A stretch of 64,000 bases of DNA, taken from positions 4,119,001-4,183,000 of the forward strand of contig JAYJMM010000004.1 of assembly GCA_037349105.1 (NCBI GenBank). The letters are read 5' to 3'. Shown in pieces: positions 1,822 to 43,739 of the stretch. The DNA comes from Limnomonas spitsbergensis. Lineage: Eukaryota; Chlorophyta; Chlorophyceae; Chlamydomonadales. Numbering within the stretch: the first letter of the stretch is position 1; every line of letters starts with the position of its first letter. The translations under genes were made by a program, and so were the position numbers. Below the pieces are notes generated by a model. It saw only the letters and a list, made by a program, of their open reading frames with translations, had not been told where the DNA came from and did not search any database.

Positions 1822-1825
1822 TGGT
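1822..1825. repeat. Putative left target-site duplication (TGGT)
   Basis: TGGT precedes the TG start of repeat X1 and recurs right after the CA end of repeat Y2 (20809-20812). Four bases can match by chance (about 1/256), but the position at both ends of a TG...CA element supports a target duplication made by a DDE integrase. Confidence 0.5.
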
Positions 1826-2461
1826 TGTCACAGTATATTACAGTATACGTGACAGAACCGTTTAGACCGCAGTTAGCGGCATCGAGGACTCCGCAGCTTC
1901 TCTGCGGAGCCTACGGATTTGAACTGGAACCTAGAAACCCGCTTACGCCGGTTGATTTGACAGATTGTACCGTATTCTGAATTGGGCCTGCCGGGTCCCT
2001 GTATCCCGGCAGTTGCCTAGGCTAGCTACTTCATCCCTTTCTAAAGGACAGACCTCTATTGTAACAAGCACCGGCCGTCATCTGTGTATGAGACCTCCTA
2101 CGTTCACATAAGTCAGTACCTTTACTCAAGTCAAGACTAGCTCAGCGCCTGCTGAGATAGCTGGAGACAAGTACCTAGCAAGAGGCCCGAGACCCTGCCG
2201 AACAAGAAGTACGCAGTCCACGTCACGTCACCCTCACCGCGAGACGCACGGTAAGTGCCCTTAACATAGCCCAGCTGGATCGCGCCCAGACGGCCAGAAG
2301 GCCTGTGCTCCCTTAGTCAATTGCCATACAACCAAATAGCCGGCTACGCTGCTTAACTCGCTGAGCACTCGCAGCCAGTGTGAAGTCACTGAGCCTGCCC
2401 GTAGGCGTCCGTCACTGCCGTGAGGAAAGAAGTCCGCCACGGACCTGAAGCGCACATCGCG
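1826..2461 (+). repeat. Direct repeat X1 (5' terminal repeat)
   Basis: 636 bp, repeated as X2 at 19943-20578. I see two differences (ttcAtccc versus ttcGtccc; gacgcAcgg versus gacgcGcgg). It opens with an imperfect palindrome: TGTCACAGTATA pairs with TATACGTGACA at 1844-1854. It should hold the promoter, since it lies upstream of the leader and ORF, but no clear TATA box was identified. A minus-strand 64-codon ORF in it is not considered real. Confidence 0.9.
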
Positions 2462-2482
2462 TGTCCTTTAGAAAGGGACGAA
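2030..2482. repeat. 21-bp inverted repeat spanning the X1/leader junction
   Basis: The sequence at 2030-2050 inside X1 is repeated in inverted orientation at 2462-2482, directly after X1 ends. It matches 20/21 with X1 and 21/21 with X2. The right arm reads TGTCCTTTAGAAAGGGACGA. It could form a long stem in the RNA leader or mark how the X/internal junction arose. The site right after a 5' repeat is where a primer-binding site is expected. Confidence 0.7.
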
Positions 2483-3179
2483 GTGGATTTAGCCTGATCA
2501 GCTTGATTTGCCAATTCCTGCTAAAGGTGCTTGTGCAGCGAATTGGAAATTTGTTTGCATACAAACGACCTTGGACAGCATTTGAACTGCACTTTGCTGT
2601 GGTAATCTCCAGAGAGAGATTGCCAAGTTAAACTCTGAGAATCACTGAGCGTGGCAGCTTAGTGTTGAGTCCAGAAGTGACTTGAAGATCTGGCTGTGGA
2701 TTTATACACCCAGCAGATAATTCCCTGTGTGACTGCGGATTGAGATCAGGTGGATCCAATTTCTCATCATTGACAGAAGTAAACTTGTGGATAGAACATC
2801 CAAGTTTGAAATCTTGTGGGTGTGCCAAAGGATCCCCGCAGGAACGCAGAGCTGAGCGGACGCTACGCAAAAGGCAACATCCACGCAGGGCGTGTGACAT
2901 CCACGCGGGACGTGAGACATCTAGAAGCAGCCCGGCCAGCAAGGTGGGAAGAACTGAAAGGGCGAAGGAGGATTCCGCCAGATTGAAACTAGTAAGCAGA
3001 AAAGCGGGAAGGCGAGGCCTTTCCTGCATAAGTGCTGTACCTGCCATCCGATCTTGACTTGCAAAATCCTCACCAGATTGCAGTAGGAACAAGGGGGCAG
3101 AAGCCTAGCGTTAGCAGATCTTGTAGAGGGTGTCGCCAGCACGCTTGCAGGACCGTGCGGTTCGTTAATTGCCTGTAGA
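2462..3179 (+). other. Untranslated leader of the retroelement
   Basis: 718 bp between X1 and the first ATG of the long ORF. This is the expected place for a primer-binding site and packaging signals. No tRNA-complementary site was recognised with confidence; a TGG triplet lies at 2484-2486, just after the inverted repeat. No other gene is seen. Confidence 0.6.
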
Positions 3180-6100: not shown

Positions 6101-9100
6101 CTTGTGGATCAAAGTGGTTCAAGCAGAAGTGGGAAAGCCAACCTCGGATGAGAGGACAGCCATTTCCAACCTCAGGCTAGGGGTGAAGACCACTCTCGAC
6201 CCTGACGTCAAGCCAGAGGAGACGGTGGAAGCATTTGCTCACAGAGTGCTGTCGACAGCAGAGTTGCTGCAGATCTCAAGGGATGCAGTGGACCATTTTG
6301 GCAGGAGGCACTCGGTCTCGCATCTGTTCCATGATGGACTTCCAGCGCTCGCTAAGGCCAAACTGAGCAAGTTTGTTATGACCGTCCCAGGGTACCTCAG
6401 CATGACAGACGAAGATCAGATTGCAGTACTCACACAGCAGGTGGTGCTGTGGGAGAAGTTTGCCTTGGAAATGGGGGATCTAGGAGGCGTAAGCCTCAAA
6501 CAGATGGCCAGTGGGCCTGGCCAGGGGGAGGCGCAGTCCAACAGAACAAGGAAGGAGAGAACAGGACAGTGGGAGATGCGGACACGCCTTGAAGGGGCAG
6601 GGAACCCCGCAGGAGCATCAGCTGCCCAGCAACAGCGGATTGACAAACCCAGAGGAGTTACCTGGGCAGATCAATCAGGAGCACCAAATTACAGCGCAGA
6701 AGGCGCTGCAGGGGCAGTCAAGGCATGCTACCAGTGTGGTAGCACGGCGCACCTGGCCAGGGATTGCAGGGCGCCCAGACCCAGGGATGAGCGCAGGCCG
6801 ACGCCACCTGCTGCTGACATTACAGCTGGGCAGCCCAGGCCGCAGCAGCAGCAGTACCCGCTCCCACCAAGGCCGCAGCAGGGTCAGCCTGCAGGCAGAC
6901 CGTACGAGCGGAATCAGAACAACAGGCAGTACCAACGGCCGGGGCCTGGCCAGGGGGGTCAGGCTCAGCAAGCGGCACACGTGTCTCACCTAAGCAGCCC
7001 AACGGGGCAAGCCGAGCCAGAGGGCTGGCAACAGACTATGGCAGAGATGCTCAGCGAGTCTGTAGCACTCATGACGCAGGTTGGGCTAGTGCCCAAATCC
7101 GCAGGATTCAAGCAGGCGGCTCACAACGCTCGTCCTAGGTCATTCTTGCCAGAACCCTGTCCGGAGGAGGAACCTGAGCAAAGGCTCGTGGAACCTGCCT
7201 CCAGGAAGGGAGCAAAGAGACTGGTTTTGAGCAAATTAGCTGACGATATGTCCGACATCCGACTGCAGGTGTTTAAGTTGAACGAGAGGCTGACGGCACT
7301 GTCATTCACCACTATGCCCATGGGTTCAGAAGACCACAGGGGTAAGGCCAGTAAGGGCAGGCAGGAAAGCAAGGTGGTCACAGCTGCACCAAGGCTGCAG
7401 TATTTTAAGAACGACAGAAGCAACCTGGAGCAATGTGTGGGCCTAATGGTCAAAGGAAAGGTCCTGGTGGCTCAGAAGGCCCTCATGGACTCAGCGTGCT
7501 CCTGTCATGTGATCACAGTCAACATTGCAGAACAGTTAGTCGCCATGGGGGCAGAGCTGATCAGGACGGATGAGAAGATCCGCACGACAGACAATGCAGG
7601 GGCAGATCTGTATGGGGTGCTGTTCATTTATGTGGTGTACGGATATGGGGGGGCCAATGCTATTATGGAACCCACGGTGGTCAGGGTCGTAAAAACACCG
7701 CCCGATGCATACGAACACTTGGTGGGGAACCCAGAGTTTCTCAAGTACAATGGGGTTTTAGAGGCAGCAGGAAGGCTGACCTTACGACCCAGAGATGGGC
7801 CCCAGACAGTGCGAGGGGTCAGGGACCTGACGCTGCCGCTGGTCCTAGCATCCCCAGCAGGGGGGTACCAGGCAGCAGCAGTAGCATGGGCAGGAATCCG
7901 GTGTGGATTTGCAGAACGTGAAGGGTGGCCCGCGGCCAGGGTAGAGGAAGAACACGAGCCGCTCTTACAGCACGCCATGGCCACACACGCAGGTGCCGCC
8001 ATAAGGACAGACCAGAAGGCGGGGCAGAGTCGCGGAACAGCCGCAGGTGCAGGCAGAAGCACCGCTGATGCGAGCAGGAGCAGCCGTGAGGAACCACAGG
8101 AGACCGCTTCCAGGCCGCGCCAGTGCGGGCAAGCGCAGGCTGCAGTGCTCAGAGAGAGCAAGGTGGATGCCAAGGCCGCTGCGTCACAGCCAAGCCAGGC
8201 AGCAGCACAGGCAGAGGCCGCTGCTGGGGTTGCAATGGCACTCAAGGCAGATGCGAAGTCGCCATACCAAAAGGAGGTCATCAGGAGGTGCCTAGAAACG
8301 AGCCCACGCTACCCATGTGTCTTGTGCGGCGAACCTGGCCCGCACTCACCAGAGGCGTGTGACCAGAGAATCCGGAGGATGCTGCAGAAGACTGCGGCAG
8401 TTCCCACAACACAGGGGACATCACCTGGAGCCAGGAAGCGGGTGGACTTTGGAGGAGCCGCAGCAGCAAGAGCTGCGCCAGCAGGATCAGTCAGGCGCTC
8501 GGAGGTGCGAGTGCCTGGCAAAGGCGAGATGGTCGGTGCGGCTGATGAGGGCGTTAGGGAAGACGCCCCAGAAGCAGCAAACCGCGACCAGAGGGAGCTT
8601 GTCAGCAAAGAGGAGAATGAAGAATCAGAGGAGTCAGAGGAGGAAGATGTCCGTGGAAGGACCAGCCCAAAGTACCTGCGTCTGCTGCGGCTGCATCAAA
8701 CAGTAGAGTTGCTGCAGCATGACGTCAAGGCAAGGGAAGAGCTGCTGTACCGCCAAGCGGCTGCAACAATTGAATACCTGAGGTTGCAGCAGGTCAGGTG
8801 GACAGGCCTCCAGGACGCCAACATACGGCTCACGGAGGTACAACAGCAGTACATCTTGCGTGCAGACCAGCTGCGAGCGCTGTATGCCAACCTTGGGAAC
8901 CAGCAGGCAGGAGAGCCGCTGCAGTCCACAATCCCAGGTGACCCGGAGCTGGCAGGGCATATGGCAGTCATGTTTCAAACCGCGGAGGAGTTCGCGGAGG
9001 AGGACGAGAGCCTGAGCCAGGAGAAGCTGCAGGACCAGGAACAGCAAGCCACTGGTCAGCAAGAACCAGGGGGCAGTGGCGGGGCCAGGCAGGCCAGCGG

Positions 9101-12100
9101 GGAAACGCGAGTGCGGCACAGGGGGTCAACCCCAGATGACGCTGTACATACAGAAACCAGAGAGCGCAGCAGGAGCGCGCAGAGGGCTCGCAGTGCAGAA
9201 CGCCGCGGGGCGGTGCCTACACCGGAGGCTCGAACCCAGCGGCCAGACCGCGATGATAGCTTCGACCGGCCTAGAGGCAGGAGGCAGCATTCACCCAGCG
9301 GGGATCGTGGGAGCCAGCCCAGGGGCAGGTCACAAGAGCGAGGCACAGGTAGCCACGCCAGGCCACACCAGCCAGAACAGAGAATGCAGGATAGAAGGGG
9401 AGCCTCCGGCCAGAGTCCGCCGGGCAGGGCCCAAGCAGGGCGCAGCTGGATGGGGGGACAGAGGAATGTCCTCGGACCCCACGATGGGGGAGTGTGCTTC
9501 AACTGTCAGAAGCCAGGGCACTTCGCTAACGCGTGCCCAGAGCAGGGAGAGGCATCGCAGCCTGGGGACAGCAGCCAGTTTGACAGATCACTGACAGCAG
9601 GAGGCCCAGACAGGAGCTGGGGAGTCAGGGGACCTGGCAGGAGCCAGGAGGTGTCAGAAGACACCATGAGGCGCGCTTACGAGGCCGCCAAGGAGGTCTC
9701 CTTTGAAGAGTGGAAAAGGCGGCAGGAGGCAGCAGGACCAAGTGAGCTGCCAGGCCCGCCAGGACGGCCAGGGCCAGCGGGGCAGTCTTACAACTCCAGG
9801 TGGGTCAGCCAGGAGAGGCACACGTGCATGATGTCTGTCCATGAAGGGCTTGGGCAGAACGCAGCGACTCAAGTTGTGAGCTACCAGGCCGCAGCAATGC
9901 CTGTAACGTTCCAAGTGGTGCCAGAGGGGCAGGTGGCCCAGCAAAGGCACCACTGGCAGATGGTGGTAGAGGCCCTAGCCATGAATCACTGTGGTACTCG
10001 GCCCGCAGGGTCAGCCAGGTCTATGGCACATGCGGTGGAGTTTCTCAGGAACCTCCAGCAAAGGGGATGCCCGGCCCCATGTGAGGGATGGCCTGGCATT
10101 CTCCAGCAGTTTCTCGACAAAGAATGGGACATCTACAATGCCCAGATGGATGAGTTTGAGAGGATAGAGCAAGAGGCAGGGCTCCAGCACAGGGTAGACG
10201 AGTGGGAAACCAGTTCTAGTGGGGACGGCACCAGCGCCTCAGAGGAAGGCCATGAGCCCCAAGCTCCTGTAACAGTGCTTGAGGAAGAAGCTGCCATGCT
10301 CTGCCCAGGTACCCCGGAGGGCAACGCGGACACAGGCGGCGAGGTAGCGGGAGCAGCCGCTGGAACCCGGAATGGGCTCAGCAGGCAGGATCACCACCCA
10401 GGGGCCAAGGGGGCAGCAGCTATGAGCCCAGAGGACAATACAGCGGGGGCCGTTAGGACCCATCACAGTACCACCTCTCGGTCCAGCGCTGCCAGATGGG
10501 AAGAGGAGGACAGAGGGCTGCAGCGCAGCCGCAGCAGGGGCGAGAGGCCCGCTGCAGGGAGTGAGGATTCCCAGTTCACCCAGGCCGGTACAGGGCGCCG
10601 GGGCAGGTCGGGCAGCAGAGGGCGGGTTCGCCCTGCGCCAGACCCGCCGAGATTGCCAGAGAGCAGGTGCTTCGTGCAATGGTACCGCCTGGGGGAAGAA
10701 ATGCCAGAGGCATCGTCTTCAGAGGCTATGATCACTCTGCCAGCACAGTCCAAAGATGGGCTTTGTAGGTTGCAGAACCACAGGCTCCTGGAGGGCAGGT
10801 CGCAAACGTGTGTCAACATAGCGGCAGCCATGCAGGCAGTGGCCAGACTGATCTTTCCATGGGACGCGGTGACAGCAGTCCTGCTGGGTGCAGCACTCAA
10901 GGGGTTCATACAGCCCAGCACAAGGATGGAGGATTATATGCAGAGGGGATGGTCAAGGCACCCCATCTACGCATACAGCGTCGGCGAGATGGTGGGCCTA
11001 GCCGTCAAAGAAGGCATCACAGCAGTAGCTGCAGCCGACAGGGCGCACCCAGACGTGCCGGATAACGCGCACACCGAGGGGGTGTGGCAGGGTGCGCAGC
11101 CCGGGTTCATGCGAACGCCATGGGCGGAGGACTGCGTCCACCAGTTGATGGAGCACCCCGCTCTCAGAGACCGCGCTTTCTACGTGCCAGTGCAGGCCTT
11201 AAGAGAGCACGGAAGGGGTGACAGGTCCGAGGATGGAACCCACAGCGAGGCAGGGCTGTGCCATGCCGATAGGCCACGGCGGTGTGAGGCCACCGTTGAG
11301 GCGTCGGTCACCATCCCCAGGATGGTCGCAGGGCAAGCTGTACCATGGGGAATGGACCCTGGGGAGGCCAGGGCAGCCATCCCAGTTCAGCAGCTGGTAA
11401 CTTACTACTACGAGGAGCTGGAAGAAGGAGAGATGCCGGTTTCAGCAGCATGGATCCACATGCATGCGTCGCGGGATGATATGCCAGTCTTCCTGTTCGC
11501 CAGGTGCGAAGGGAATGTGGCGATCACCAGGTGTGCATCAGTCGACGAGGCAGAGTTCCACGCGCACACGCACGCCAGGGGAGCAGACCCAGCAACATGG
11601 GCAGTCATGCTCATGGCGTTGCAACGGGTTCTGCTTCCGGGACAGCTGTCAGCAGCCATGCGGCACGTCTGGGGCGTGGATGATCAGTGGGCGCCGCTGG
11701 AAATGACAGACTGCCCCGCATGGCCATATGGAGCCCAGAGGTCGCCAGCGGATGGACCCATGTGGGAAGACGAGGAGGAGTTCGCGCGCTCGCCGTTCGC
11801 AGTAGAACGGTTAGAAGCGTGCGTGCACCAGTGGGTGCGATGGGAGAGAAGAGCGTGGCGCGACAACAGGGCCAGCAGCGTGGTCCCGTATTGGCAGGCA
11901 AACGGCATGACAGTACAGCTGTGGAGGCAGGCGCACCCGGCAGGGGTACGCACTCTGCATCCCCTGTTCAGAGGAGCAGGGTCGGATACCTACATGGAGG
12001 AGCTGGAGGAGCTGAGGACTCAGCCCGTGCCGGGGCGCTGGATGGTGGGCAGATGGGGTTCCCACTATTGGGACCCCGCTGCCATCACTGACGGACCAAT

Positions 12101-15100
12101 CCAGGACACATACCAGGAACCAACAGAGCAGGGCCATGTCGCCTTTGTCACCACTCTCGGGGCAACAGCATCCTCTTGGGAGTGGCTGGAGCCCATGGAG
12201 GACATGGAGGTGTCAGCCCTGGAGGCTGAGACCGGGGATCGGGCGGAGCCCCAGACAGCCCCGGACAGTACCAGCAGACCACTTGCAGGAGACCTGGACA
12301 GCAGGAAGCCATGGTCCAGCAATGCGCTTCGCCCCAGCCATGAGGGCAGGGGGCTGCTAGGAGAGGAGAATGAAGACCCTTCGGAAGGGCCACCATCACT
12401 GGTGCAGGATTCAGAGTCGGAGGATGAGTGGGGCGCTGACAGTAGCCCGTGCCCAGCAAGGATCAGCCTCACAAGAGCTGATGCCGGGGATGCAGATGGG
12501 ATGGAAGAGCCAACCAACGCAGGCCCTGGACCAGGGAGTCCAGTGTGGGGCCGCGAGGAGGACTTGTTACAGCTACGACAGGAGTGGATGCGCGAGGTTG
12601 CTCAGGAGCAAGCAGCCATGGAAGAGCGCAGAACCAGGAGAGCCGAGATAGAACGCAGCAGCAAGGTCGCGCTAGAGGAGAAGGCACACAAGGTCGCAGT
12701 GGGGGTGAACCCGCGGCAGGCAGCAGACCAGTGCGCTGGCAAGCCCAAGGGGGCAGCAGCAGGCAAGGCGAGCAGCAGGAGCCCAGGGGACGCCCAGATC
12801 AGCCCGCCAGCACAGGCAGCAGCAAGGGAGCCCTGGGGCGATCCAGCAGCATACAGCACGGAACGCTGGGTGGCAGTGCTCAGGCACTTCGTGGATGAGC
12901 TAGACGTGCTAAGAAGGCAGGAAATGGGGCAGCAAGAGGCAAGCCAGGAGGCTAGCCTAGTTTTCCGGCTCAGAATGCTGCCACAGCCCGATCCGAACCC
13001 CAGGATGGGAGGTTACAGCAGGGCGGTCAGGGAGCTACAGGAGGAGCTGACGGAGAGAATATCAGCCCTCAACAAGTTGGGAGCAAAGGGAGTGGACACC
13101 CAACAGCCGTCGGACAGCCGCAGCAGCCAGGCCCAAACCAGCAGGGGGGAGGACCTTGCAAGAAGGGCTGCCAGCGCTCGGGCAACCTTGCGACAGGGCT
13201 GTGGGCCTGAGGAGCCCGCGGGTGCCGGCAGCAGCAAGACTGTGCAGCGCGCCATTCACAGGCAGGAGCGGCTGGCACAGGGCAGCACAGGTCAGATACC
13301 AGGAGCAGGGCCAGAAAGGGCCGGTGCGGCTTGGGCTGACACTGCCGAGTTGCGGGGGAAAAAGTCAAAAAAGGCTAGGCGGCGCGCGGGAAAGGCGCAG
13401 AGGGCAGCCGAGGACAGGAACCGTGGCAGCAGACCAGGAATGGACTGCCCAGTCCTGCCGCTCAGGATCAGCCAGGTGGATCTGGAGATCACATGGGCCA
13501 ATGGGCAGCAGAGGCCAGCGCAGAGCGCAGAGCCATGCGTACAGCCCGCAGAACACCTACCGCAGACACCCGCTAGGCAGATGCCAGCTTGCAGAGGACT
13601 CCTCACCTGTACAGCATTTAAGGGGATCCTTACGGGGACGCTCCAGCTGATACTGGTGTGGCTCCTGCTGTCGGTGTGTGTGCCAGGGGCGCGAGCCACC
13701 GAGCAGGGGGTACGAGGAGGAGGATTTACAGCAGGCCAAGGGGCTTTTGTGTCTGGACAAGAGGCAGCAGCGAAGCTGTCGTCTGGATGGTTGCGCCCGC
13801 CAGCAGTCATTCCCATGGGGGGTGCCAGCAGGAGGGGTGCCTGCAGCCAGCAGGAGAGCTGGCAAAGCGGCAACGACACTGGCAGGGAAGAGCCGCCCGC
13901 GGAGGACGACCCGCAGGCGGCTGAGATGATCGACATGTTCCAGCCGGGGGGAGTCGTGGAGCCGCCCGCGGAGTACGTCAAAACCAAGGAGGGGTGGCTG
14001 CTGGGCCAGCACCCCGACTTCACTGCGGAACAGCAGGAGAGCCTGGAGCAGAGCCTCAGGGATCGCCAAGGGGCGTTCGCTTACTCCATGGAGGATCTAC
14101 CAGGCTACTGCGGCACGCAGGGTGAGTTTACGCTGGCTTTAGAAGACGAGGTCAGTTCGTGCTTTCAGAAGTCCAGGGACATGCCGCCACCCAAAGCAGC
14201 CATTTTTAAAGAAAAGTGCCAGCCAATGATACAGGCAGGTATCATCGTCAAAGTACCCCAGGGGGGGCCTATCAAGTTTGCGGCCAACTCAGTAGTAGCA
14301 GCCAAGAAGAGTGCTGAGACTGGGGAGTGGACTGACCATCGGATAGCGCACGATATGCGCAGGTTAAACCTGCGTACGGCTAAGCAGGAGTTTGCAATCC
14401 CCAGGATGGAGACTATTTTTCAGAACCTGGGAACTGCCAAGATATTCAGCAAGGTTGATCTCCGGTCGGGGTTCATGCAGATCCCTATAAAGGTCGAGGA
14501 CCAGCCTAAGACAGCTTTCTGGATGGGACCTGAGCTTTGGATGTACACAAAGCTCAACTTCGGTCTGCGCAATGGACCTCCCTTCTTTCAGCGTATGATG
14601 GAAGAGGAGATTGCCAGGGCAGGCCTGAGTGCGTTCTGCGTGGCATTCATTGACGATCTGCTAGTGTACAGTGACACACCGGCAGAACACATCAGGCATG
14701 TGGAGCTGATGTTAGACATGCTCCACAGTGTAGGATTAAGGGCGCACCCCGACAAGTCCCTGTTTGGGTGTGCAACGGTAGAGTACCTGGGTCACAATGT
14801 GTCGGCCCAGGGGCTCACGCCGCACGCAGCCAAGATAGCAGCGGTTATGGCGCTGCCAGAGCCCACATCGGTGAAAAACATTCAGGAGGTCATGGGATTC
14901 TTGAATTTCTACCGGTGCTACGTCCCGGATTTCTCGAAAAAGGCGGCATGCATCAACGCATTGCTGGTCAAGGGGGTCCCGTTTGTGTGGGGGCCAGAGC
15001 AGTCGCAGGCGTTCCAGTTGATCAAAACAGAGATGTGCGAGGGCGGAAGAGTTCTGCGCAGGCCAGATTACAGTGGGACAGGGCCAGACGGCAAGGGGCC

Positions 15101-18100
15101 GCCAAGGCCGTTCTTGCTGTACACAGATTTCTCTAAGCAGGGCATAGGTGCCGTGCTAGGGCAGTGTGACGACAGCGGGCGGGAGTATATGGTGGCATGC
15201 ACGTCCAGATCCCTGAACAAGAGCGAGAGGAACTATTCCTCGTTCCAGGGGGAGATGCTGGCCGCAGTGTATGCAGCACGCACATACCGTCACATGCTGT
15301 TTGGGTGCAAGGTGCATCTCATCACTGACCACGAGCCGCTCACTTACCTCATGGACAATCAGACGTTGGTAGGCCAGCACGCTAGGTGGGCTCTCATGCT
15401 TCAAGAGCTGGACATTACCATTGTCCACCGCTCAGGGGCATGCCATCAGAATGCGGACATCCCGTCCAGATCGCCACTCCCATCCTCAGCTGACCGCACG
15501 GGGGCCAGGCTTGATACAGCCGCTCCCGAGCCGGCAGCCCAGGAGGAGGCAGGGGGGAAGCAGGTAGCTTTACTCACGGGGTTGGGCAGAATGAACCAGT
15601 GGCATGCAGACCAGATGGTGCGCATGGCACAGGAAGGCAGAAGAAGAGTACAGATACTGCGAGCTGCAGAGGCAGCTTGCGTGACAGCGCCGGTAGGGCA
15701 GGAGATATCCTCTGCCGCCACTGACGATGATGAGCAGGCGCAACCTGTCAGTACAGCAGAACAGGCATTCAGCAACAGGGAGCGGGCCAGGACAATGATC
15801 AGTGATGTTCTTGCTGACCTGCCCCGGGTGACGCCCCCTCATTCACATGCAGGCCTGGACACAGCTTGCCTGTCGGGTGGGGCTGTGCGGGCCATGGAGA
15901 CCGAGGGAGTCGTCCTTTTCGAGCCCTTTGGAGGTATGTGTTCAGGGTTGGAGATGGTGCTCAGGGCGGGTATCCCGGTGGTGCAGTACTTGTATGCTGA
16001 TATCAGTGAGGAAGTCAGAGAGATCGCAGGGGGTCGCCTGGTGCAGTTGCACAGGAGATACCCTCAGTTGTTTCCGGTCAAAGCGTTTGATAAGGCGTTC
16101 AGAGCGTTGCCCCAGGATGTGTATGCCATTACGGCAAAGCACCTCCAGGAGGCGGGCGCCCAGGAGGGGCGCCAGTGGTTCATGGTAGCAGGTTGGGAGT
16201 GCCAGGACCTCTCGTCAGCAGGCAAGGGGCGTGGGCTCGAGGGAGAGAGAAGCAAGTCTTTCTTCCCGTTAGTCAAGCTATTGGGTACACTACAGTTCCT
16301 GCAGGGGCCTAGGCCGCCAGCGTACCTGATTGAGAATGTGGCAATGCAGTTGAATCAGAAGAGTGTGAAGGCCAGTGTTGAGGCTTTTCAGGAGGTGTGC
16401 AGGATTCTGGGAACACCGGCGCTGTTTGACGCAGCGCAGGTGGGGTCTTACGCCCACCGCACCCGCAACTATTGGGGGAATATCGCCCCTGCAGCAGATA
16501 TTGAGTTTGTGATTCGTGCGTCAACCAGACCCCACGGGGGGATAGTAGACGACATTCTAGACAAGGGTAGCAAGGCCCAGGTCGTCTCATGCCCGGACAA
16601 TGGGGGGTATCGCATCAACGTAACAGGACAGCCCAGGAAGGTGCTGCCGTGTCTGATGGCCACGCCCTCGTCATATGCTTTTCGGAACGGGCAGAATGGG
16701 ATGGTGTACAGATCCATGGGGGACTTGCAGGAGCCTAATGCAAATGAGCGTGAGCGTGCCATGGGGTACGCTGTGGGGTCCACATTGCCGCGCCAAGACT
16801 TCCCAGAGGCGGCCAGGAGGGCAGCCTTGGGCAGGTGCATGGATTCGTGGGCACTGGGTGCATGGCTCAATGTGGCACTTGAGTGTGCTAAAATCATACC
16901 AGAGGAATTGAAACGCAGGGCAAGGCTGCCAGGCCCGGACAGGGACCCAGCGCTGGGTGCAACCTTAATGTCCAGCCACTATGCCCTTGCTACTGCAGGA
17001 AACGCATGCTCTGGCAGCGGGGAGGTGGCCGCGTCATACAGGCAGTGCCTGGGAGAATCGGCTGCGGCAGACTGGGCCGACGCAGCACAGGAACCAGGTG
17101 GGAACACGCCTGAGGGGCAAGTTGTGGTTGAAAGCGTGGTGACCAGGGTCACAGAGTGTGAGAAGGACCCGCCAGGATGCCCTGCAGGACCATCGGTCAG
17201 GGTTGATGTGTGGGCAGACGAACCTGTATTGAGGTTTCTCCGTGAGAAGACATACGTTCAGGGAACAGAGCTAGGAGAACAGACCAGAATACAGCGCAGA
17301 GCGGCGCCGTTCCAGTGGGAATCAGAGAGGGGAGGAGTACTGATGAGACTCATGCCTGACGGTAGACGATGTGTGGTGCCCAGGCCAGAAGACAGGCTTG
17401 CAGTGATCCAGACAGCCCATGCCGGTACGGGCCACTTTGGCAGTCACCGCACGGCCTTCATGGTCATGCAGCAGCACTGGTGGCGGGGACTCAGAGCAGC
17501 AGTCAGGAAGGCAGTGCAGGAATGTGGTGTGTGTGACAGGGCCAGGGCGTCCACGTTCAATCACATACAGCCCAACCTGCACCCGCTACCCATTGAGGGG
17601 TTGTTTTTCCGGTGGGGAGTGGACTTGTGTGGTCCATTTACGACCACTTCCAGAGGCAATCGGTTTGTGATGGTTTGTGTGGAGCATTACTCCAAATGGG
17701 TGGAGTTGATTCCCATTCCAAGCAAGGCGTCTGATGTGACGGCCTTGGCATTCTTTCAAAATGTGGTTGCACGATTCGGGGGATGCGCAGAGGTGGTGAC
17801 AGACCAGGGAACAGAGTTCCAGGGTGAGTTTCAGGACATGTTGTTGGACTGCTTCATTGACCACCGCACCACTTCTGCCAACCACCCCCAGGCAGACGGG
17901 CTATCAGAGAGGGCTGTCCAGACCCTCAAGGCAGGCCTGCGCAAGTGCTGCGAGGAGGGCAGCAGCGACGAGTCCTGGGACAAGATGGTGCCCTGGGTAG
18001 CCCTAGGCTTCCGATGCTCGCCGCAGCAGGCCACGCGCATGGCGCCGTACGAGGTGCTGTTCGGACAGAGACCCACCTTCCCCTCCAGAGTGGGGGCGGA

Positions 18101-19010
18101 CCTCTGGAGCACAGCCAAGGTGGCAACAGCAGAGGAGGCAGCAGACCTGCTCTTGGCCAGAGTGGCCAGGATCAAAGAGGCACTGCCAGTCGCGGGTGAG
18201 CATCTAAAAATTGCGCAGCACCGCGACAAGCTGCGATATGCACGCATTCGTGGGGGAGGGTATGTCCCCCAGGTCAGGCGTTTTGCAGAGGGAGATTACG
18301 TGTATGTGAAGTATTCATCAGAGCGACGCAGCCTCGACCCCAAGGCCAGGCCTGAGATCCTCAGGGTAAAAACACTGGGGGCGACGGGAACCTTAGTGTT
18401 GGAAGGGGCAGATGGCGTCACAGTTACAGAGAATGCAGTCAATTGTTCTCCATGCCACTTGCCCAACCTCAGGGGAGTGGTTGATTTCAGTGGAACCAGA
18501 CCCAATAACAGCCTGTCATGCGAGGTGTGCCAGCTGCCCGACCGCGGAGAGGTGATGCTTTTGTGTGATGCCTGCAATACAGGTTGGCACATGGATTGCT
18601 TGGTACCAGTACTTGAGGAGGTGCCTGAGGGCGAGTGGTTGTGCCCAACTTGCGCGACTGAGGACAAGGGAGCTGAGCCCGCAGCAGGGGCTGGACCCGC
18701 TGCAGAGGATTGCAGTGTGCAGGTCCAGGGGCGGCCGAGCCCGGCAGCCAGAGCGGCTGCCAGGACAGCCCAGGAGGCCAACGTCATGGACAGGCCTGAG
18801 GTGGAAGTCATGGCCACCAACCCAGCAACAAGGCAGATGGAGCGGGGCATCGCAAGACCCATGGCGAACGGATTGTACGACATCTCGTACACCACTGGCC
18901 GGGGAGAGGCCAATGTTACCCCGAGAGCAGTTACAAGAAGGGCTAAGGTGGCCAAAGAGGCAGCAAGGGAGGAAGAGGAGTCAGCCCTTGAGGAGCTTAC
19001 CGAGACCTGA
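3180..19010 (+). CDS. Giant Gag-Pol polyprotein with DNMT3-like methyltransferase and PHD finger
   Basis: 5276 codons in one frame from ATG 3180. Order by residue: Arg/Gln/Glu-rich N-terminus to about 840, with 18-residue tandem repeats at 638-699; Gag-like helical region about 845-1110; zinc knuckle CX2CX4HX4C at about 1183-1196; protease-like DSACS around 1434; variant CX2CX5HX4C near 1713; second canonical knuckle (CFNCQKPGHFANAC) near 2106; long charged or acidic linkers; hydrophobic segment about 3480-3506; RT with FIDD at 3823-3826; RNase H about 3960-4110; cytosine-C5 methyltransferase about 4240-4580; H2C2 zinc finger and integrase with D4815, D4875, E4910; PHD finger 5114-5158. Typical Ty3/gypsy polyproteins are about 1200-2000 residues, so this is unusually long. 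Two separated canonical zinc knuckles suggest duplicated or fused Gag modules. The polyprotein presumably needs proteolytic processing. No frameshift or stop is visible. Confidence 0.93.
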   Translation: MTDVDLNPDRHLHPDAQRRSGRLRGLEPGVNLMEASDELAAEALLVAAKLAGPVEPPAGNCKVPEPGRVPPREAGAQADGSALVTRKGIGRGGPVPADFRGSLEFEQWQTQAGTPELILDQATEVSQSCDTRQNCEPKATPQQNPPRVARVSQRVKDEPSQPDQRAEEAAAPREVAGCDKACPDKQRMKAEEMEARSMPAGVKHEEAEPQPAAGRQSSQVGKEREKSAVPVGNPWADQISEEELSDPVQEEKGQQSKTGLRPRQQLRPRRVLVRRGAGSTVYGTPLSRFPPSVGRPVQKSKEGSSSLTQRDDSHKEILRGFFHDPSGAQDTSPSEPERSRAGGAVCGEKESEVHMQPIGWTGILQWATDLWKQVCSRTFLHFQDQVTAIEEFKAHHLRGWATKAMLGIPHTGQDRATLLAALGQVSKGRAGREAALAVKAFADEWCNEVTGNQVEPGSEQEEEEDQAWEGFETAVQRPEELREVQRWQQQARAAPTPALRSEAFEVSSEPSLRGRPRGREAPRASSPAASERAELTSRSLARMAEQGTATRRASRQESYALLRIVEDKENTCQETQVDYIKEFLRNRQAGTASGTRRNEPAGSARSSGPRMQEAREETQSDSYARNYTGGTQPGWQGQELPRGQAYNREQPNRHSQEQPRGQADGREHPSQHSQEPPREQADGREQPSQQSQEQPRGPAEHSRGVRQERQDQELPRGQAEPGRAQAWRPGSDSRPGRSESERLPPEGSRSSAGRAGRQPSREDHDQEEDYYRHDRYHSGRSPSRGGGGGSRSRSESVDSGPGGADRRRPGARQESSDQEMKRLEREQARVNLQLQQQMVLQLAGVAKFTKIPAIQGNVPVLDMSHPGAVAARKYCQACGYWGSHNRLALSDDPPALAVVAGEIAGSCQSPSAMTMLVKSLVKLWDSKPASVGPLMVAIRAAPHAGDRAAREAERIRGTWVAPAEEQCCEASLLTLWIKVVQAEVGKPTSDERTAISNLRLGVKTTLDPDVKPEETVEAFAHRVLSTAELLQISRDAVDHFGRRHSVSHLFHDGLPALAKAKLSKFVMTVPGYLSMTDEDQIAVLTQQVVLWEKFALEMGDLGGVSLKQMASGPGQGEAQSNRTRKERTGQWEMRTRLEGAGNPAGASAAQQQRIDKPRGVTWADQSGAPNYSAEGAAGAVKACYQCGSTAHLARDCRAPRPRDERRPTPPAADITAGQPRPQQQQYPLPPRPQQGQPAGRPYERNQNNRQYQRPGPGQGGQAQQAAHVSHLSSPTGQAEPEGWQQTMAEMLSESVALMTQVGLVPKSAGFKQAAHNARPRSFLPEPCPEEEPEQRLVEPASRKGAKRLVLSKLADDMSDIRLQVFKLNERLTALSFTTMPMGSEDHRGKASKGRQESKVVTAAPRLQYFKNDRSNLEQCVGLMVKGKVLVAQKALMDSACSCHVITVNIAEQLVAMGAELIRTDEKIRTTDNAGADLYGVLFIYVVYGYGGANAIMEPTVVRVVKTPPDAYEHLVGNPEFLKYNGVLEAAGRLTLRPRDGPQTVRGVRDLTLPLVLASPAGGYQAAAVAWAGIRCGFAEREGWPAARVEEEHEPLLQHAMATHAGAAIRTDQKAGQSRGTAAGAGRSTADASRSSREEPQETASRPRQCGQAQAAVLRESKVDAKAAASQPSQAAAQAEAAAGVAMALKADAKSPYQKEVIRRCLETSPRYPCVLCGEPGPHSPEACDQRIRRMLQKTAAVPTTQGTSPGARKRVDFGGAAAARAAPAGSVRRSEVRVPGKGEMVGAADEGVREDAPEAANRDQRELVSKEENEESEESEEEDVRGRTSPKYLRLLRLHQTVELLQHDVKAREELLYRQAAATIEYLRLQQVRWTGLQDANIRLTEVQQQYILRADQLRALYANLGNQQAGEPLQSTIPGDPELAGHMAVMFQTAEEFAEEDESLSQEKLQDQEQQATGQQEPGGSGGARQASGETRVRHRGSTPDDAVHTETRERSRSAQRARSAERRGAVPTPEARTQRPDRDDSFDRPRGRRQHSPSGDRGSQPRGRSQERGTGSHARPHQPEQRMQDRRGASGQSPPGRAQAGRSWMGGQRNVLGPHDGGVCFNCQKPGHFANACPEQGEASQPGDSSQFDRSLTAGGPDRSWGVRGPGRSQEVSEDTMRRAYEAAKEVSFEEWKRRQEAAGPSELPGPPGRPGPAGQSYNSRWVSQERHTCMMSVHEGLGQNAATQVVSYQAAAMPVTFQVVPEGQVAQQRHHWQMVVEALAMNHCGTRPAGSARSMAHAVEFLRNLQQRGCPAPCEGWPGILQQFLDKEWDIYNAQMDEFERIEQEAGLQHRVDEWETSSSGDGTSASEEGHEPQAPVTVLEEEAAMLCPGTPEGNADTGGEVAGAAAGTRNGLSRQDHHPGAKGAAAMSPEDNTAGAVRTHHSTTSRSSAARWEEEDRGLQRSRSRGERPAAGSEDSQFTQAGTGRRGRSGSRGRVRPAPDPPRLPESRCFVQWYRLGEEMPEASSSEAMITLPAQSKDGLCRLQNHRLLEGRSQTCVNIAAAMQAVARLIFPWDAVTAVLLGAALKGFIQPSTRMEDYMQRGWSRHPIYAYSVGEMVGLAVKEGITAVAAADRAHPDVPDNAHTEGVWQGAQPGFMRTPWAEDCVHQLMEHPALRDRAFYVPVQALREHGRGDRSEDGTHSEAGLCHADRPRRCEATVEASVTIPRMVAGQAVPWGMDPGEARAAIPVQQLVTYYYEELEEGEMPVSAAWIHMHASRDDMPVFLFARCEGNVAITRCASVDEAEFHAHTHARGADPATWAVMLMALQRVLLPGQLSAAMRHVWGVDDQWAPLEMTDCPAWPYGAQRSPADGPMWEDEEEFARSPFAVERLEACVHQWVRWERRAWRDNRASSVVPYWQANGMTVQLWRQAHPAGVRTLHPLFRGAGSDTYMEELEELRTQPVPGRWMVGRWGSHYWDPAAITDGPIQDTYQEPTEQGHVAFVTTLGATASSWEWLEPMEDMEVSALEAETGDRAEPQTAPDSTSRPLAGDLDSRKPWSSNALRPSHEGRGLLGEENEDPSEGPPSLVQDSESEDEWGADSSPCPARISLTRADAGDADGMEEPTNAGPGPGSPVWGREEDLLQLRQEWMREVAQEQAAMEERRTRRAEIERSSKVALEEKAHKVAVGVNPRQAADQCAGKPKGAAAGKASSRSPGDAQISPPAQAAAREPWGDPAAYSTERWVAVLRHFVDELDVLRRQEMGQQEASQEASLVFRLRMLPQPDPNPRMGGYSRAVRELQEELTERISALNKLGAKGVDTQQPSDSRSSQAQTSRGEDLARRAASARATLRQGCGPEEPAGAGSSKTVQRAIHRQERLAQGSTGQIPGAGPERAGAAWADTAELRGKKSKKARRRAGKAQRAAEDRNRGSRPGMDCPVLPLRISQVDLEITWANGQQRPAQSAEPCVQPAEHLPQTPARQMPACRGLLTCTAFKGILTGTLQLILVWLLLSVCVPGARATEQGVRGGGFTAGQGAFVSGQEAAAKLSSGWLRPPAVIPMGGASRRGACSQQESWQSGNDTGREEPPAEDDPQAAEMIDMFQPGGVVEPPAEYVKTKEGWLLGQHPDFTAEQQESLEQSLRDRQGAFAYSMEDLPGYCGTQGEFTLALEDEVSSCFQKSRDMPPPKAAIFKEKCQPMIQAGIIVKVPQGGPIKFAANSVVAAKKSAETGEWTDHRIAHDMRRLNLRTAKQEFAIPRMETIFQNLGTAKIFSKVDLRSGFMQIPIKVEDQPKTAFWMGPELWMYTKLNFGLRNGPPFFQRMMEEEIARAGLSAFCVAFIDDLLVYSDTPAEHIRHVELMLDMLHSVGLRAHPDKSLFGCATVEYLGHNVSAQGLTPHAAKIAAVMALPEPTSVKNIQEVMGFLNFYRCYVPDFSKKAACINALLVKGVPFVWGPEQSQAFQLIKTEMCEGGRVLRRPDYSGTGPDGKGPPRPFLLYTDFSKQGIGAVLGQCDDSGREYMVACTSRSLNKSERNYSSFQGEMLAAVYAARTYRHMLFGCKVHLITDHEPLTYLMDNQTLVGQHARWALMLQELDITIVHRSGACHQNADIPSRSPLPSSADRTGARLDTAAPEPAAQEEAGGKQVALLTGLGRMNQWHADQMVRMAQEGRRRVQILRAAEAACVTAPVGQEISSAATDDDEQAQPVSTAEQAFSNRERARTMISDVLADLPRVTPPHSHAGLDTACLSGGAVRAMETEGVVLFEPFGGMCSGLEMVLRAGIPVVQYLYADISEEVREIAGGRLVQLHRRYPQLFPVKAFDKAFRALPQDVYAITAKHLQEAGAQEGRQWFMVAGWECQDLSSAGKGRGLEGERSKSFFPLVKLLGTLQFLQGPRPPAYLIENVAMQLNQKSVKASVEAFQEVCRILGTPALFDAAQVGSYAHRTRNYWGNIAPAADIEFVIRASTRPHGGIVDDILDKGSKAQVVSCPDNGGYRINVTGQPRKVLPCLMATPSSYAFRNGQNGMVYRSMGDLQEPNANERERAMGYAVGSTLPRQDFPEAARRAALGRCMDSWALGAWLNVALECAKIIPEELKRRARLPGPDRDPALGATLMSSHYALATAGNACSGSGEVAASYRQCLGESAAADWADAAQEPGGNTPEGQVVVESVVTRVTECEKDPPGCPAGPSVRVDVWADEPVLRFLREKTYVQGTELGEQTRIQRRAAPFQWESERGGVLMRLMPDGRRCVVPRPEDRLAVIQTAHAGTGHFGSHRTAFMVMQQHWWRGLRAAVRKAVQECGVCDRARASTFNHIQPNLHPLPIEGLFFRWGVDLCGPFTTTSRGNRFVMVCVEHYSKWVELIPIPSKASDVTALAFFQNVVARFGGCAEVVTDQGTEFQGEFQDMLLDCFIDHRTTSANHPQADGLSERAVQTLKAGLRKCCEEGSSDESWDKMVPWVALGFRCSPQQATRMAPYEVLFGQRPTFPSRVGADLWSTAKVATAEEAADLLLARVARIKEALPVAGEHLKIAQHRDKLRYARIRGGGYVPQVRRFAEGDYVYVKYSSERRSLDPKARPEILRVKTLGATGTLVLEGADGVTVTENAVNCSPCHLPNLRGVVDFSGTRPNNSLSCEVCQLPDRGEVMLLCDACNTGWHMDCLVPVLEEVPEGEWLCPTCATEDKGAEPAAGAGPAAEDCSVQVQGRPSPAARAAARTAQEANVMDRPEVEVMATNPATRQMERGIARPMANGLYDISYTTGRGEANVTPRAVTRRAKVAKEAAREEEESALEELTET
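5091..5275 (+). repeat. 54-bp (18-residue) tandem repeat in the Gag N-terminal region
   Basis: Three full units (5091-5144, 5145-5198, 5199-5252) and a partial fourth. Each encodes a Gln/Arg/Pro-rich unit of the form QE(L/Q/P)PRGQADGREQPSQHS. The repeat is in frame and probably a disordered spacer. Unit number could vary between element copies. Confidence 0.85.
13598..13700 (+). other. Hydrophobic segment upstream of RT, with signal-peptide-like AxA end
   Basis: Within the polyprotein, residues about 3480-3506 form a strongly hydrophobic run containing LQLILVWLLLSVCV, followed by PGARA. It resembles a transmembrane helix or an internal signal peptide. Such a segment is not a standard part of Ty3/gypsy Pol. 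It may anchor a processed product to membrane or be an old env-like or host-derived piece. No env glycoprotein features are seen. Confidence 0.5.
13950..15480 (+). other. Reverse transcriptase and RNase H domains of the polyprotein
   Basis: The RT shows the usual gypsy landmarks: KVDLRSGFMQIPI (fingers/palm), LNFGLRNGPPFFQRMM, catalytic FIDDLLVYS, and FLGHN-like EYLGHNVS. RNase H follows with LLYTDFSKQGIGAVLG, GEMLAAVYA and LITDHEPLTYL, which hold the conserved D, E and D. All catalytic residues I can check are present, so the domain looks functional. The domain order RT-RH then integrase is that of Ty3/gypsy, not Ty1/copia. Confidence 0.93.
15897..16925 (+). other. DNMT3/DRM-like DNA (cytosine-5)-methyltransferase domain inside Pol
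   Basis: Domain lying between RNase H and integrase. Motif I: FEPFGGMCSGLEMVL (from residue 4247), binding S-adenosylmethionine. Motif IV: GWECQDLSSAG with catalytic Cys4341, where a Glu stands in place of the usual Pro before the Cys. Motif VI: ENV at 4385-4387. Motif VIII: HRTRNYWGNI, matching the DNMT3-type RxRxFWGN. Then a target-recognition stretch and a C-terminal ERERAMGYAVG...ALGRCMDSWALG, matching the DNMT3 EMERVFGF...LLGRSW block. The motif order is the standard DNMT3 one, not the permuted plant DRM order. Likely role: methylating cytosines in the element's own DNA copy or in the host genome. Retrotransposon-borne DNMTs are known from dinoflagellates and charophyte algae. Activity with an EC motif is uncertain. 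Confidence 0.9.
17390..18660 (+). other. DDE integrase with C-terminal PHD finger
   Basis: An H2C2 zinc-binding region (HAGTGHFGSH...ECGVCDRAR) precedes the catalytic core with GVDLCGPF, VTDQGTEFQ and PQADGLSERAVQTLK. The catalytic residues are D4815, D4875 and E4910, so the last spacing is 34 rather than the common 35. After a basic/GPY-like region comes a C4HC3 PHD finger from Cys5114 (CEVCQLPDRGEVMLLCDAC... to ...WLCPTC). PHD fingers read histone tails, so this may steer integration to particular chromatin, as chromodomains do in chromoviruses. That role is inferred. Confidence 0.9.
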
Positions 19011-19707
19011 GGCCGAGCCCAGAGCGGCAAGGCCGCTGAGCACGTGACGTCACCCACGCCGTAACTGGCAAGGAGCGGGCAAGCGCCTACAGAGCAGGAA
19101 TGCAGACGCAGCGCGGCTTGTCCTAGTACCCAGCAGGCAGTGGGCCGGCAGCCAGCGGACCAAAGACGGAAGATGCAGGAGGGGAGTTAAAGCTATAGCG
19201 GCAGCATAGTGAAAATTTTGTTCCTCCCAACACCATAGCAGCAGGGCTACGGTGGTACATATGTTATGACAATGATGAGCGAGGAGAATTAGTCAACTCG
19301 GGCAATGATAGCACAGTAGGAGGCGGATCACGCTGCTACGGCGCACAATTCCTGTGGCCATTAAAGACCAGGCGGCTATGGCGCAGTGGGGCGAGAGCAG
19401 CGGTTGTTCTTAGCTTGACCTGATAACTTTGAAATTTCCCTGTTTGCTAGCCAGTAGTGGGCTGAACAGCTTGAATTTGTAGGATGCTGCGCATTGCGCT
19501 TCAGCCGAAACTCGGTGGTTTTTTTCTTTTAAAGTTCTGTTTGAAGAAGGCCTGAACCAGGCAAATTTGCAGAAGGCCTGAACCAGGCAGATTTACGGCA
19601 GATGATTTAAGCTTCTACGTACATATTTTTCCAGAAGTTTATTTCAGTACCACCCCTTTTCCGGCTCCCCGCGCACGCCTGGAGGGCTTAACGCTGGGGA
19701 GCGGGGG
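19011..19707 (+). other. 3' untranslated region of the retroelement with G-rich polypurine tract
   Basis: No ORF is seen. A short direct duplication (GAAGGCCTGAACCAGGCA, two copies) lies at about 19545-19590. The G-rich tract GGGGAGCGGGGGG (19696-19708) abuts repeat Y1, where a plus-strand priming polypurine tract is expected. Its position suggests that reverse transcription treats Y1 as the start of the 3' terminal repeat. Confidence 0.6.
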
Positions 19708-19940
19708 GCGAGTAAAGTAGTAGGGGCGGTACCCAAGAGACGGAGACTTCCAGACAGAGATATCCAGTTAGGGACTTCCAGTTACAGTTATCTTGTTAAC
19801 AAGCTCTTGTCTGAAGTACAAGGAGCATGAGTGTACGGTGATGTACCGTATTTGTGAGTAGAGGACACCTCTCTAAGGTGTCCTGACCGGAGTTTACGGT
19901 ATTTACCATAGTATTGCAGTTACTGCTTTATGGTGCGACA
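19708..19940 (+). repeat. Direct repeat Y1
   Basis: 233 bp, apparently identical to Y2 (20576-20808). It contains a perfect hairpin-forming stretch (GGACACCT ctcta AGGTGTCC, near 19863) and ends GCGACA. It is followed by GC and then X2, so the junction looks like the end of one terminal repeat joined to the start of another. Confidence 0.9.
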
Positions 19941-19942
19941 GC

Positions 19943-20578
19943 TGTCACAGTATATTACAGTATACGTGACAGAACCGTTTAGACCGCAGTTAGCGGCATC
20001 GAGGACTCCGCAGCTTCTCTGCGGAGCCTACGGATTTGAACTGGAACCTAGAAACCCGCTTACGCCGGTTGATTTGACAGATTGTACCGTATTCTGAATT
20101 GGGCCTGCCGGGTCCCTGTATCCCGGCAGTTGCCTAGGCTAGCTACTTCGTCCCTTTCTAAAGGACAGACCTCTATTGTAACAAGCACCGGCCGTCATCT
20201 GTGTATGAGACCTCCTACGTTCACATAAGTCAGTACCTTTACTCAAGTCAAGACTAGCTCAGCGCCTGCTGAGATAGCTGGAGACAAGTACCTAGCAAGA
20301 GGCCCGAGACCCTGCCGAACAAGAAGTACGCAGTCCACGTCACGTCACCCTCACCGCGAGACGCGCGGTAAGTGCCCTTAACATAGCCCAGCTGGATCGC
20401 GCCCAGACGGCCAGAAGGCCTGTGCTCCCTTAGTCAATTGCCATACAACCAAATAGCCGGCTACGCTGCTTAACTCGCTGAGCACTCGCAGCCAGTGTGA
20501 AGTCACTGAGCCTGCCCGTAGGCGTCCGTCACTGCCGTGAGGAAAGAAGTCCGCCACGGACCTGAAGCGCACATCGCG
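19943..20578 (+). repeat. Direct repeat X2
   Basis: 636-bp copy of X1 lying between Y1 and Y2. It differs from X1 at two positions by eye, which argues for a recent insertion. It shares its last three bases (GCG) with the start of Y2. Confidence 0.9.
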
Positions 20579-20808
20579 AGTAAAGTAGTAGGGGCGGTAC
20601 CCAAGAGACGGAGACTTCCAGACAGAGATATCCAGTTAGGGACTTCCAGTTACAGTTATCTTGTTAACAAGCTCTTGTCTGAAGTACAAGGAGCATGAGT
20701 GTACGGTGATGTACCGTATTTGTGAGTAGAGGACACCTCTCTAAGGTGTCCTGACCGGAGTTTACGGTATTTACCATAGTATTGCAGTTACTGCTTTATG
20801 GTGCGACA
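20576..20808 (+). repeat. Direct repeat Y2 (3' end of the element)
   Basis: 233-bp copy of Y1 at the outer 3' end. It ends ...GTGCGACA, giving the element TG...CA termini with a short inverted match (TGTCAC / GCGACA). A TGGT follows at 20809-20812, matching the four bases before X1. Confidence 0.9.
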
Positions 20809-20819
20809 TGGTCCATGGT

Positions 20820-43735: not shown

Positions 43736-43739
43736 CTTA

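What the first reader, a model, noticed from the sequence alone, without database searches (positions are those of the whole stretch)
15897..16925. DNMT3-like DNA methyltransferase captured inside a Ty3/gypsy Pol polyprotein
Motifs I, IV, VI, VIII and the DNMT3-type C-terminal block are all present in order, in frame, between RNase H and integrase. An element that carries its own de novo methyltransferase could mark its own cDNA or reshape host methylation. Retroelement-borne DNMTs have been reported in dinoflagellates and charophyte algae, so the class is known. The RT-RH-DNMT-IN-PHD order together with split repeats may be new.
Basis: partly seen in the sequence, partly recalled or inferred. 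Interest (0 to 1): 0.85.

Follow-up and report, generated by a model that had tools for sequence, protein, structure and literature searches.

The report
Methyltransferase-carrying retrotransposon of a snow alga
A jumping gene in a green snow alga carries its own DNA-methylating enzyme, and its copies look as if they re-enter the genome from a closed DNA circle; it is a new variant of a rare known kind.

Summary
Window 15897-16925 encodes a DNMT3-type cytosine methyltransferase domain, in frame between RNase H and integrase of one 5307-codon Ty3/gypsy ORF. The assembly matches Limnomonas spitsbergensis (Chlamydomonadales). At least 118 close copies exist; the domain is under purifying selection. 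The class is known: KnitGypsy-Dnmt3 of Klebsormidium also has DNMT3 in a Gypsy Pol and DIRS-type split repeats (PMC5890265), so split repeats are not new.

Beyond that report: (1) motif IV reads Glu-Cys instead of Pro-Cys, as in 34 of 41 readable relatives; a second family in this genome has Met-Cys. (2) Repeats are A1-ORF-B1-GC-A2-B2 with TG..CA ends and 4-bp target duplications in 10 of 11 copies. A self-priming site follows A1 and a purine tract precedes B1, so B-GC-A reads as the LTR. The A2|B2 joint carries extra T, TG or TGT, the first letters of the primer-binding site, in 7 of 34 copies; B1|GC|A2 keeps its length in 31 of 31. This fits joined cDNA ends re-opened at an internal palindrome. 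(3) RT-RNase H is lost as a GT-AG intron in separate lineages. Enzyme activity and role are untested.

The parts
1822..1825 (.). target site duplication TGGT, left
1826..2461 (+). repeat A1 (636 nt; begins TGTCACAG, ends GCG)
   Evidence: 634 of 636 identical to A2
2028..2050 (+). stretch of A1 complementary to the primer-binding site (self-primer candidate)
   Evidence: 1 mismatch here, 0 in A2 at 20145-20167, next best place in the element 9 mismatches; perfect in the 10 other copies
2462..2484 (+). self-priming primer-binding site directly after A1
   Evidence: the priming itself is inferred
3087..19010 (+). single Gag-Pol frame, 5307 codons
6723..6770 (+). CCHC zinc knuckle 1 (18.3 bits, below cut-off 20.8)
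9492..9542 (+). CCHC zinc knuckle 2
   Evidence: 25.1 bits
14122..15852 (+). GT-AG intron-like segment (1731 nt, 577 codons) holding RT and RNase H
   Evidence: exactly absent in 3 of 30 copies and 2 of 10 more
14337..14801 (+). reverse transcriptase (RVT_1)
   Evidence: 2.3e-22
14988..15380 (+). RNase H
   Evidence: 4.6e-26
15867..16892 (+). DNMT3-type cytosine methyltransferase domain
16197..16202 (+). motif IV Glu-Cys (usual Pro-Cys)
16332..16340 (+). motif VI Glu-Asn-Val
17388..17549 (+). integrase H2C2 zinc domain
   Evidence: 4.1e-11
17613..17888 (+). integrase catalytic core (rve, DDE type)
   Evidence: 4.1e-10
18519..18653 (+). PHD finger
   Evidence: 7.9e-11
19696..19710 (+). purine-rich tract directly before B1 (candidate polypurine tract)
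   Evidence: sequence; role inferred
19711..19940 (+). repeat B1 (ends GCGACA)
   Evidence: identical to B2
19937..19946 (.). palindrome GACA-GC-TGTC at B1|GC|A2, proposed integrase cleavage site
   Evidence: GC spacer in 31 of 31 copies; the same in the one family B copy seen
19943..20578 (+). repeat A2
20579..20808 (+). repeat B2; the A2|B2 joint at 20578/20579 is read as joined cDNA ends
20809..20812 (.). target site duplication TGGT, right

Best explanation
This is a recently active Ty3/gypsy-type retrotransposon of a green alga whose Pol carries a DNMT3-family cytosine methyltransferase. Shown: domain order, predicted fold, purifying selection, 4-bp target duplications, split repeats, a variable A2|B2 joint beside a constant B1|GC|A2, and repeated precise loss of the RT-RNase H intron. 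Inferred cycle: the RNA starts inside A1, and a stretch near its 5' end primes at the site directly after A1 (self-priming as recalled for Tf1); reverse transcription gives linear cDNA with the LTR B-GC-A at both ends; the two cDNA ends are joined, giving A2|B2; the integrase opens the joined form at the palindrome GACA-GC-TGTC inside one LTR, the GC is lost, and A-ORF-B-GC-A-B is inserted with a 4-bp duplication. The methyltransferase most likely methylates cytosines of the cDNA or circle before insertion. That last step is inferred from its place in Pol and from the CG activity reported for SymbioDIRS-Dnmt3; the Glu-Cys motif leaves its activity open.
For: DNMT3 class. Selection: nonsynonymous/synonymous difference 0.09-0.20 in 12 Pfam-ranked copies. 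TG..CA ends and 4-bp duplications in 10 of 11 copies. Complement of the primer-binding site only in A, perfect in 10 of 10 other copies. Extra letters at A2|B2 in 8 of 34 copies, 7 of them T, TG or TGT, the start of the primer-binding site; no length change at B1|GC|A2 in 31 of 31, Fisher p 0.005. T joints lie in several subfamilies with clean neighbours. Same palindrome in family B. A foamy-virus integrase cuts palindromic LTR-LTR junctions with a two-base stagger (PMC1180852, passages).
Against: No circle, RNA end or enzyme activity was observed. 26 of 34 joints are clean, so most copies do not discriminate. 17 of 40 copies fetched for the joint were unreadable. One added letter is A, not from the primer-binding site (L052). 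L093 and L095 may be one event. L049 lacks a target duplication. Motif IV lacks the Pro. CpG in the ORF (0.51-0.63 observed/expected) is like the rest of the window (0.51-0.61), so there is no mark of element-specific methylation. The KnitGypsy enzyme showed no activity in yeast, called inconclusive by its authors.
Confidence: 0.55

Rival explanations
1. DIRS-like replication: the RNA runs from A1 into B2, the internal B1-A2 stretch serves as a splint to restore both ends, and the A2|B2 joint is simply copied from RNA, although the recombinase is a DDE integrase.
For: Repeat order equals that of DIRS, SymbioDIRS-Dnmt3 and KnitGypsy-Dnmt3 (PMC5890265).
Against: No tyrosine recombinase match in the ORF or in 7 other frames of the element scanned; 4-bp target duplications and TG..CA ends; T/TG/TGT at the joint would be a coincidence; a primer-binding-like site and a purine tract sit where an LTR B-GC-A needs them.
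Confidence: 0.2
2. No circle: the joint arises when reverse transcriptase jumps from one cDNA end to the other, or in linear concatemers, and integrase then uses the internal palindromes.
For: Would leave the same joint, including leftovers of the primer-binding site; circles were not seen.
Against: Nothing here separates it from ligation into a circle.
Confidence: 0.2
3. The methyltransferase domain is no longer an enzyme: the Glu-Cys motif abolishes methyl transfer and the domain is kept as a DNA- or chromatin-binding module, with the PHD finger, for targeting or packaging.
For: Motif IV has Glu (family A) or Met (family B) in place of Pro; no element-specific CpG depletion.
Against: Cys of motif IV and Glu-Asn of motif VI are invariant in the 18-sequence alignment; HR.R..W of motif VIII is kept in most rows where it can be read; selection is strong.
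Confidence: 0.25
4. The missing RT-RNase H segments are DNA deletions or template jumps at short repeats, not splicing.
For: Both edges contain GCAGG.
Against: Exchange at GCAGG would leave one G fewer than seen; the edges match GT-AG sites exactly; the same gap sits in three separate places of a 30-copy tree and in two more copies.
Confidence: 0.12

Closest known systems
KnitGypsy-Dnmt3 of Klebsormidium nitens (de Mendoza et al. 2018, PMC5890265)
   Same: Dnmt3 domain in the Pol of an LTR Gypsy element, repeats arranged as in DIRS, purifying selection on the domain.
   Different: Charophyte host.
SymbioDIRS-Dnmt3 of Symbiodinium (PMC5890265)
   Same: Dnmt3 in Pol beside RT, A-coding-B-A-B repeats; enzyme methylates CG in yeast.
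   Different: Integrates with a tyrosine recombinase in a separate ORF; a DIRS element.
Gypsy relatives in Chromochloris zofingiensis (P0002), Monoraphidium neglectum (P0039) and metagenomes
   Same: 40-55% identical DNMT domain; RT-RH-DNMT or DNMT-IN-PHD order in several; mostly Glu-Cys.
   Different: Known here only as protein pieces, repeats not seen; P0038 and P0023 have the DNMT before RT.
Self-priming LTR retrotransposons such as Tf1 (recalled)
   Same: Primer-binding site after U5 complementary to a stretch within the repeat of the same RNA.
   Different: Recalled Tf1 LTRs are ordinary; here the inserted form is permuted.
Retroviral 2-LTR circle junctions cut by integrase (PMC1180852, passages)
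   Same: Cleavage at a palindrome, two bases lost on integration.
   Different: There the palindrome is the LTR-LTR joint; here it lies inside the LTR, so the inserted form is permuted.

Membership tests
DNMT3 family (C5-cytosine methyltransferases) | Sequence and fold closest to DNMT3 among solved C5 methyltransferases | tested here: met
DNMT3 family (C5-cytosine methyltransferases) | Catalytic Pro-Cys in motif IV | tested here: not met
   Cys present, Pro replaced by Glu; so I file it as DNMT3-like
DNMT3 family (C5-cytosine methyltransferases) | Glu-Asn of motif VI | tested here: met
   invariant in 18 sequences
DNMT3 family (C5-cytosine methyltransferases) | Makes 5-methylcytosine | not testable with these tools
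   needs an enzyme assay
Ty3/gypsy retrotransposons | RT and RNase H upstream of a DDE integrase with H2C2 domain | tested here: met
   by RT phylogeny not tested
Ty3/gypsy retrotransposons | TG..CA ends with a 4-6 bp target duplication | tested here: met
   10 of 11 copies with 4 bp
Ty3/gypsy retrotransposons | Two identical whole LTRs flanking the coding part | tested here: not met
   A1-ORF-B1-GC-A2-B2 in 11 of 11 copies; so an unusual gypsy-type element
DIRS retrotransposons | Tyrosine recombinase | tested here: not met
   none found in the ORF or 7 other frames
DIRS retrotransposons | Split repeats A-coding-B-A-B | tested here: met
KnitGypsy-Dnmt3-like elements | Dnmt3 in Gypsy Pol with DIRS-type repeats | tested here: met
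KnitGypsy-Dnmt3-like elements | Common descent of element and DNMT domain | not tested
   no Klebsormidium sequence was at hand; none is named among the hits

The most novel reading that the evidence does not exclude
An old lineage of green-plant gypsy elements integrates from a closed circle: cDNA ends are joined first, then a DDE integrase opens the circle at a palindrome placed inside the LTR, much as IS3-type transposases use a circle junction (recalled). This would explain the DIRS-type repeats of DDE elements. The circle phase would be the substrate of, and the reason for, the carried methyltransferase, in line with the repeated pairing of split repeats and DNA methyltransferases in DIRS, SymbioDIRS and KnitGypsy. 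The Glu-Cys motif would mark a methyltransferase subclass, and RT encoded as an intron would let the element make Gag-DNMT-integrase without RT.
Probability: 0.35. Interest if true: 0.87.

Novelty: new variant of a known kind. Interest (0 to 1): 0.68.

Why it matters
It places retroelement-borne DNMT3 in a chlorophyte with many intact, recent copies, so the open question of what such enzymes do for an element becomes testable. It offers sequence evidence that split repeats in a DDE-integrase element come from joining cDNA ends and re-opening at an internal palindrome, a route proposed and mostly set aside for retroviruses (recalled). It also shows a conserved change in the catalytic motif of cytosine methyltransferases that asks for biochemistry.

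Tried and rejected
Assembly join or chimera: rejected, the same fusion lies in at least 118 places. Chance Pfam match: rejected by profile and fold. Viral capture: Foldseek against viral models finds phage and giant-virus C5 methyltransferases at weaker E (best 4.7e-12, 17% identity) than DNMT3 in the PDB (6.7e-16); different libraries, so only a hint. Host DNMT3 as donor: not identified; the three strongest other PF00145 places (L001-L003) look giant-virus-like, L004-L008 were not studied. Element-specific CpG depletion: none. Duplicated Gag around the two zinc knuckles: no significant similarity (best E 0.093). The model's coordinates around the Glu-Cys loop were not inspected.

My first selection estimate (DNMT 0.079, integrase 0.085) was biased, since copies were ranked by protein likeness, and its RT figure (0.73) was spoilt by copies lacking or rearranging RT; one search replaces it. 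Of 10 copies checked for the intron loss because of shorter frames, 8 were unspliced there (L140-L147). In L025 one gap shares the donor edge and a second has no GT edge in the window. The intron was sought at the same place in family B by eye only, without a clear result.

Papers: PMC5890265 parts 1-3 of 7 and passages; PMC12440569 part 1 of 5; PMC11228838, PMC8226300, PMC6338049 and PMC1180852 passages; all others only in search listings. Searches for print on such elements in chlorophytes, or on split repeats with a DDE integrase. PMC6338049 states in passing that methylase-bearing Ty3/Gypsy and DIRS elements occur in green algae and charophytes, among others. None of the listed titles and abstract starts describes this element; the library holds no preprints and few subscription papers.

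Full report
What is there. The window is C4:4119001-4183000 of a 260,226,709-base genome in 124 contigs. The published Limnomonas spitsbergensis assembly has 260.248 Mb, 124 contigs and a longest contig of 10.736 Mb (PMC11228838, passages); C41 here has 10,736,355 bases. I take that snow alga (Chlamydomonadales) as host. Its paper gives Gypsy/DIRS1 elements as 4.41% of the genome and its main text does not contain 'methyltransferase'.

Copies and selection. 118 of 979 candidates were scored and all match at 95-100% identity, so 118 is a lower bound; 6 of 118 have a stop inside the domain. That list is ranked by likeness to the window. Selection was therefore measured on 12 copies taken from the Pfam-ranked list: nonsynonymous over synonymous difference (uncorrected) 0.09-0.20 against the window, 0.157 over all pairs; 1 of 12 has a stop. 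The list is still ranked by intact motifs, so some bias remains. The codon for the unusual Glu is GAG in 23 and GAA in 7 of 30 copies.

Motif IV. C5 methyltransferases have Pro-Cys there (general knowledge); this element has Glu-Cys. Of 47 relatives found in two searches, 41 have a readable motif: 34 Glu, 7 Pro; some are fragments or near-copies of each other. A second family in the same genome, here called B (L059, 2214 codons read, RT-RH-DNMT-IN-PHD), has Met-Cys-Thr in 6 of 6 members looked at. In an unrooted tree of 37 sequences the three Met rows group with a Glu row (95/86), five Pro rows form one group (100/98) and a sixth stands apart. So the change is old and kept, not the decay of one copy. 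Whether such an enzyme still transfers methyl groups is unknown.

Repeats. All 11 copies examined have A1-ORF-B1-GC-A2-B2, begin TGTCAC and end GCGACA; 10 of 11 have a perfect 4-bp target duplication, the copy of L049/L050 does not. Within a copy A1 and A2 differ by 0-2 bases, while A differs by 11-13% between the window and the other ten, so both come from one template in each round. Directly after A1 lies a 23-nt site that is the exact complement of a stretch inside A (perfect in A2 and in 10 of 10 other copies, one mismatch in the window's A1; next best place in the element 9 mismatches). A purine-rich tract lies directly before B1. By the usual rules for LTR elements (recalled: primer-binding site after U5, purine tract before U3, self-priming as in Tf1) the LTR is B-GC-A, and the genomic form is a permutation of the cDNA.

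Test of that reading. If cDNA ends are joined anew each round, A2|B2 should vary slightly and B1|GC|A2 should not. I read A2|B2 in 34 copies: the window, 10 full-length copies and 23 of 40 others fetched; the other 17 had no readable joint at the expected place. 26 are clean, 5 have an added T, one TG, one TGT and one A. T, TG and TGT are the first letters of the primer-binding site, as expected if a few primer-templated bases stay on the U5 end. One clean joint (L108) has another small insertion beside it. The control B1|GC|A2 has the two-base GC in 31 of 31 (11, 20; L125 has a base substitution next to it); Fisher p 0.005. The T joint occurs in about four subfamilies by the first 95 nt of B2, with clean neighbours; L093 and L095 may be one event. 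The one family B copy seen has the same GACA-GC-TGTC although its DNMT is only about 42% identical; its B2 is split by another insertion and its 5' end was not seen.

Splicing. In 3 of 30 copies (L022, L024, L033) exactly 14122-15852 is missing, between CAGG|GTGAGT and CATGCAG|GCC, frame kept, taking out RT and RNase H and leaving DNMT, integrase and PHD. They lie in three separate places of the copy tree, each with an unspliced nearest neighbour. Two of ten further copies picked by frame length show the same joint and may share one origin. The simplest account is an RNA intron removed before reverse transcription in trans. Whether the spliced protein is used is unknown.

What is known. DNMT3 in a Gypsy Pol with DIRS-type repeats is described for Klebsormidium, and DNMT3 in DIRS elements for Symbiodinium (PMC5890265). 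SymbioDIRS enzymes methylated CG in yeast; KnitGypsy did not, which the authors call inconclusive. The present case is a new variant: other phylum, changed motif IV, PHD finger, RT as an intron, and evidence on how the split repeats may arise.

Judgement. Presence and class of the domain: near certain. Joining of cDNA ends: likely, but from genomic traces only. Role of the methyltransferase: open.

Noticed in passing
L001 (C30:291933-295874), L002 (C93:388691-392236), L003 (C14:271408-274935): Other C5 methyltransferase genes in the genome. L001 lies beside an NAD-ligase-like frame (25.8 bits, cut-off 27) and a Peptidase_S74 match; these places look like giant-virus insertions, for L002 and L003 by eye only.
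   Followed up: partly
window 13626-13682 (residues 3514-3532); L059 frame residues 90-108: A strongly hydrophobic, membrane-segment-like stretch just upstream of RT in both families.
   Followed up: no
L045/L046 (C27) and L137 (C58): Nesting: one family A copy sits inside another A repeat; the family B copy sits in a family A gag and its B2 is split by a further insertion (read by eye).
   Followed up: no
L096 (C112:1876867-1877087): At the place of the A2|B2 joint this copy shows the A end followed by the primer-binding site, as at a 5' end; perhaps a tandem or a rearranged copy.
   Followed up: no
P0023, P0038: In these relatives the methyltransferase lies before RT, so the domain order differs among relatives (P0023 by eye).
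   Followed up: no
window 30426-31998 and 40707-42171: Inverted pair of about 1.5 kb in pieces at 84-91% identity, arms some 9-11 kb apart; unnamed repeat.
   Followed up: no
window 25985-26602 (+) and 53593-54180 (-): Exon-like matches to V_ATPase_I (2.7e-31) and Wtap (2.2e-18): the element lies near host genes.
   Followed up: no
window 43001-45000: Strong GC skew (+0.31 to +0.34) over 2 kb; the 253-codon frame there has no Pfam match.
   Followed up: no
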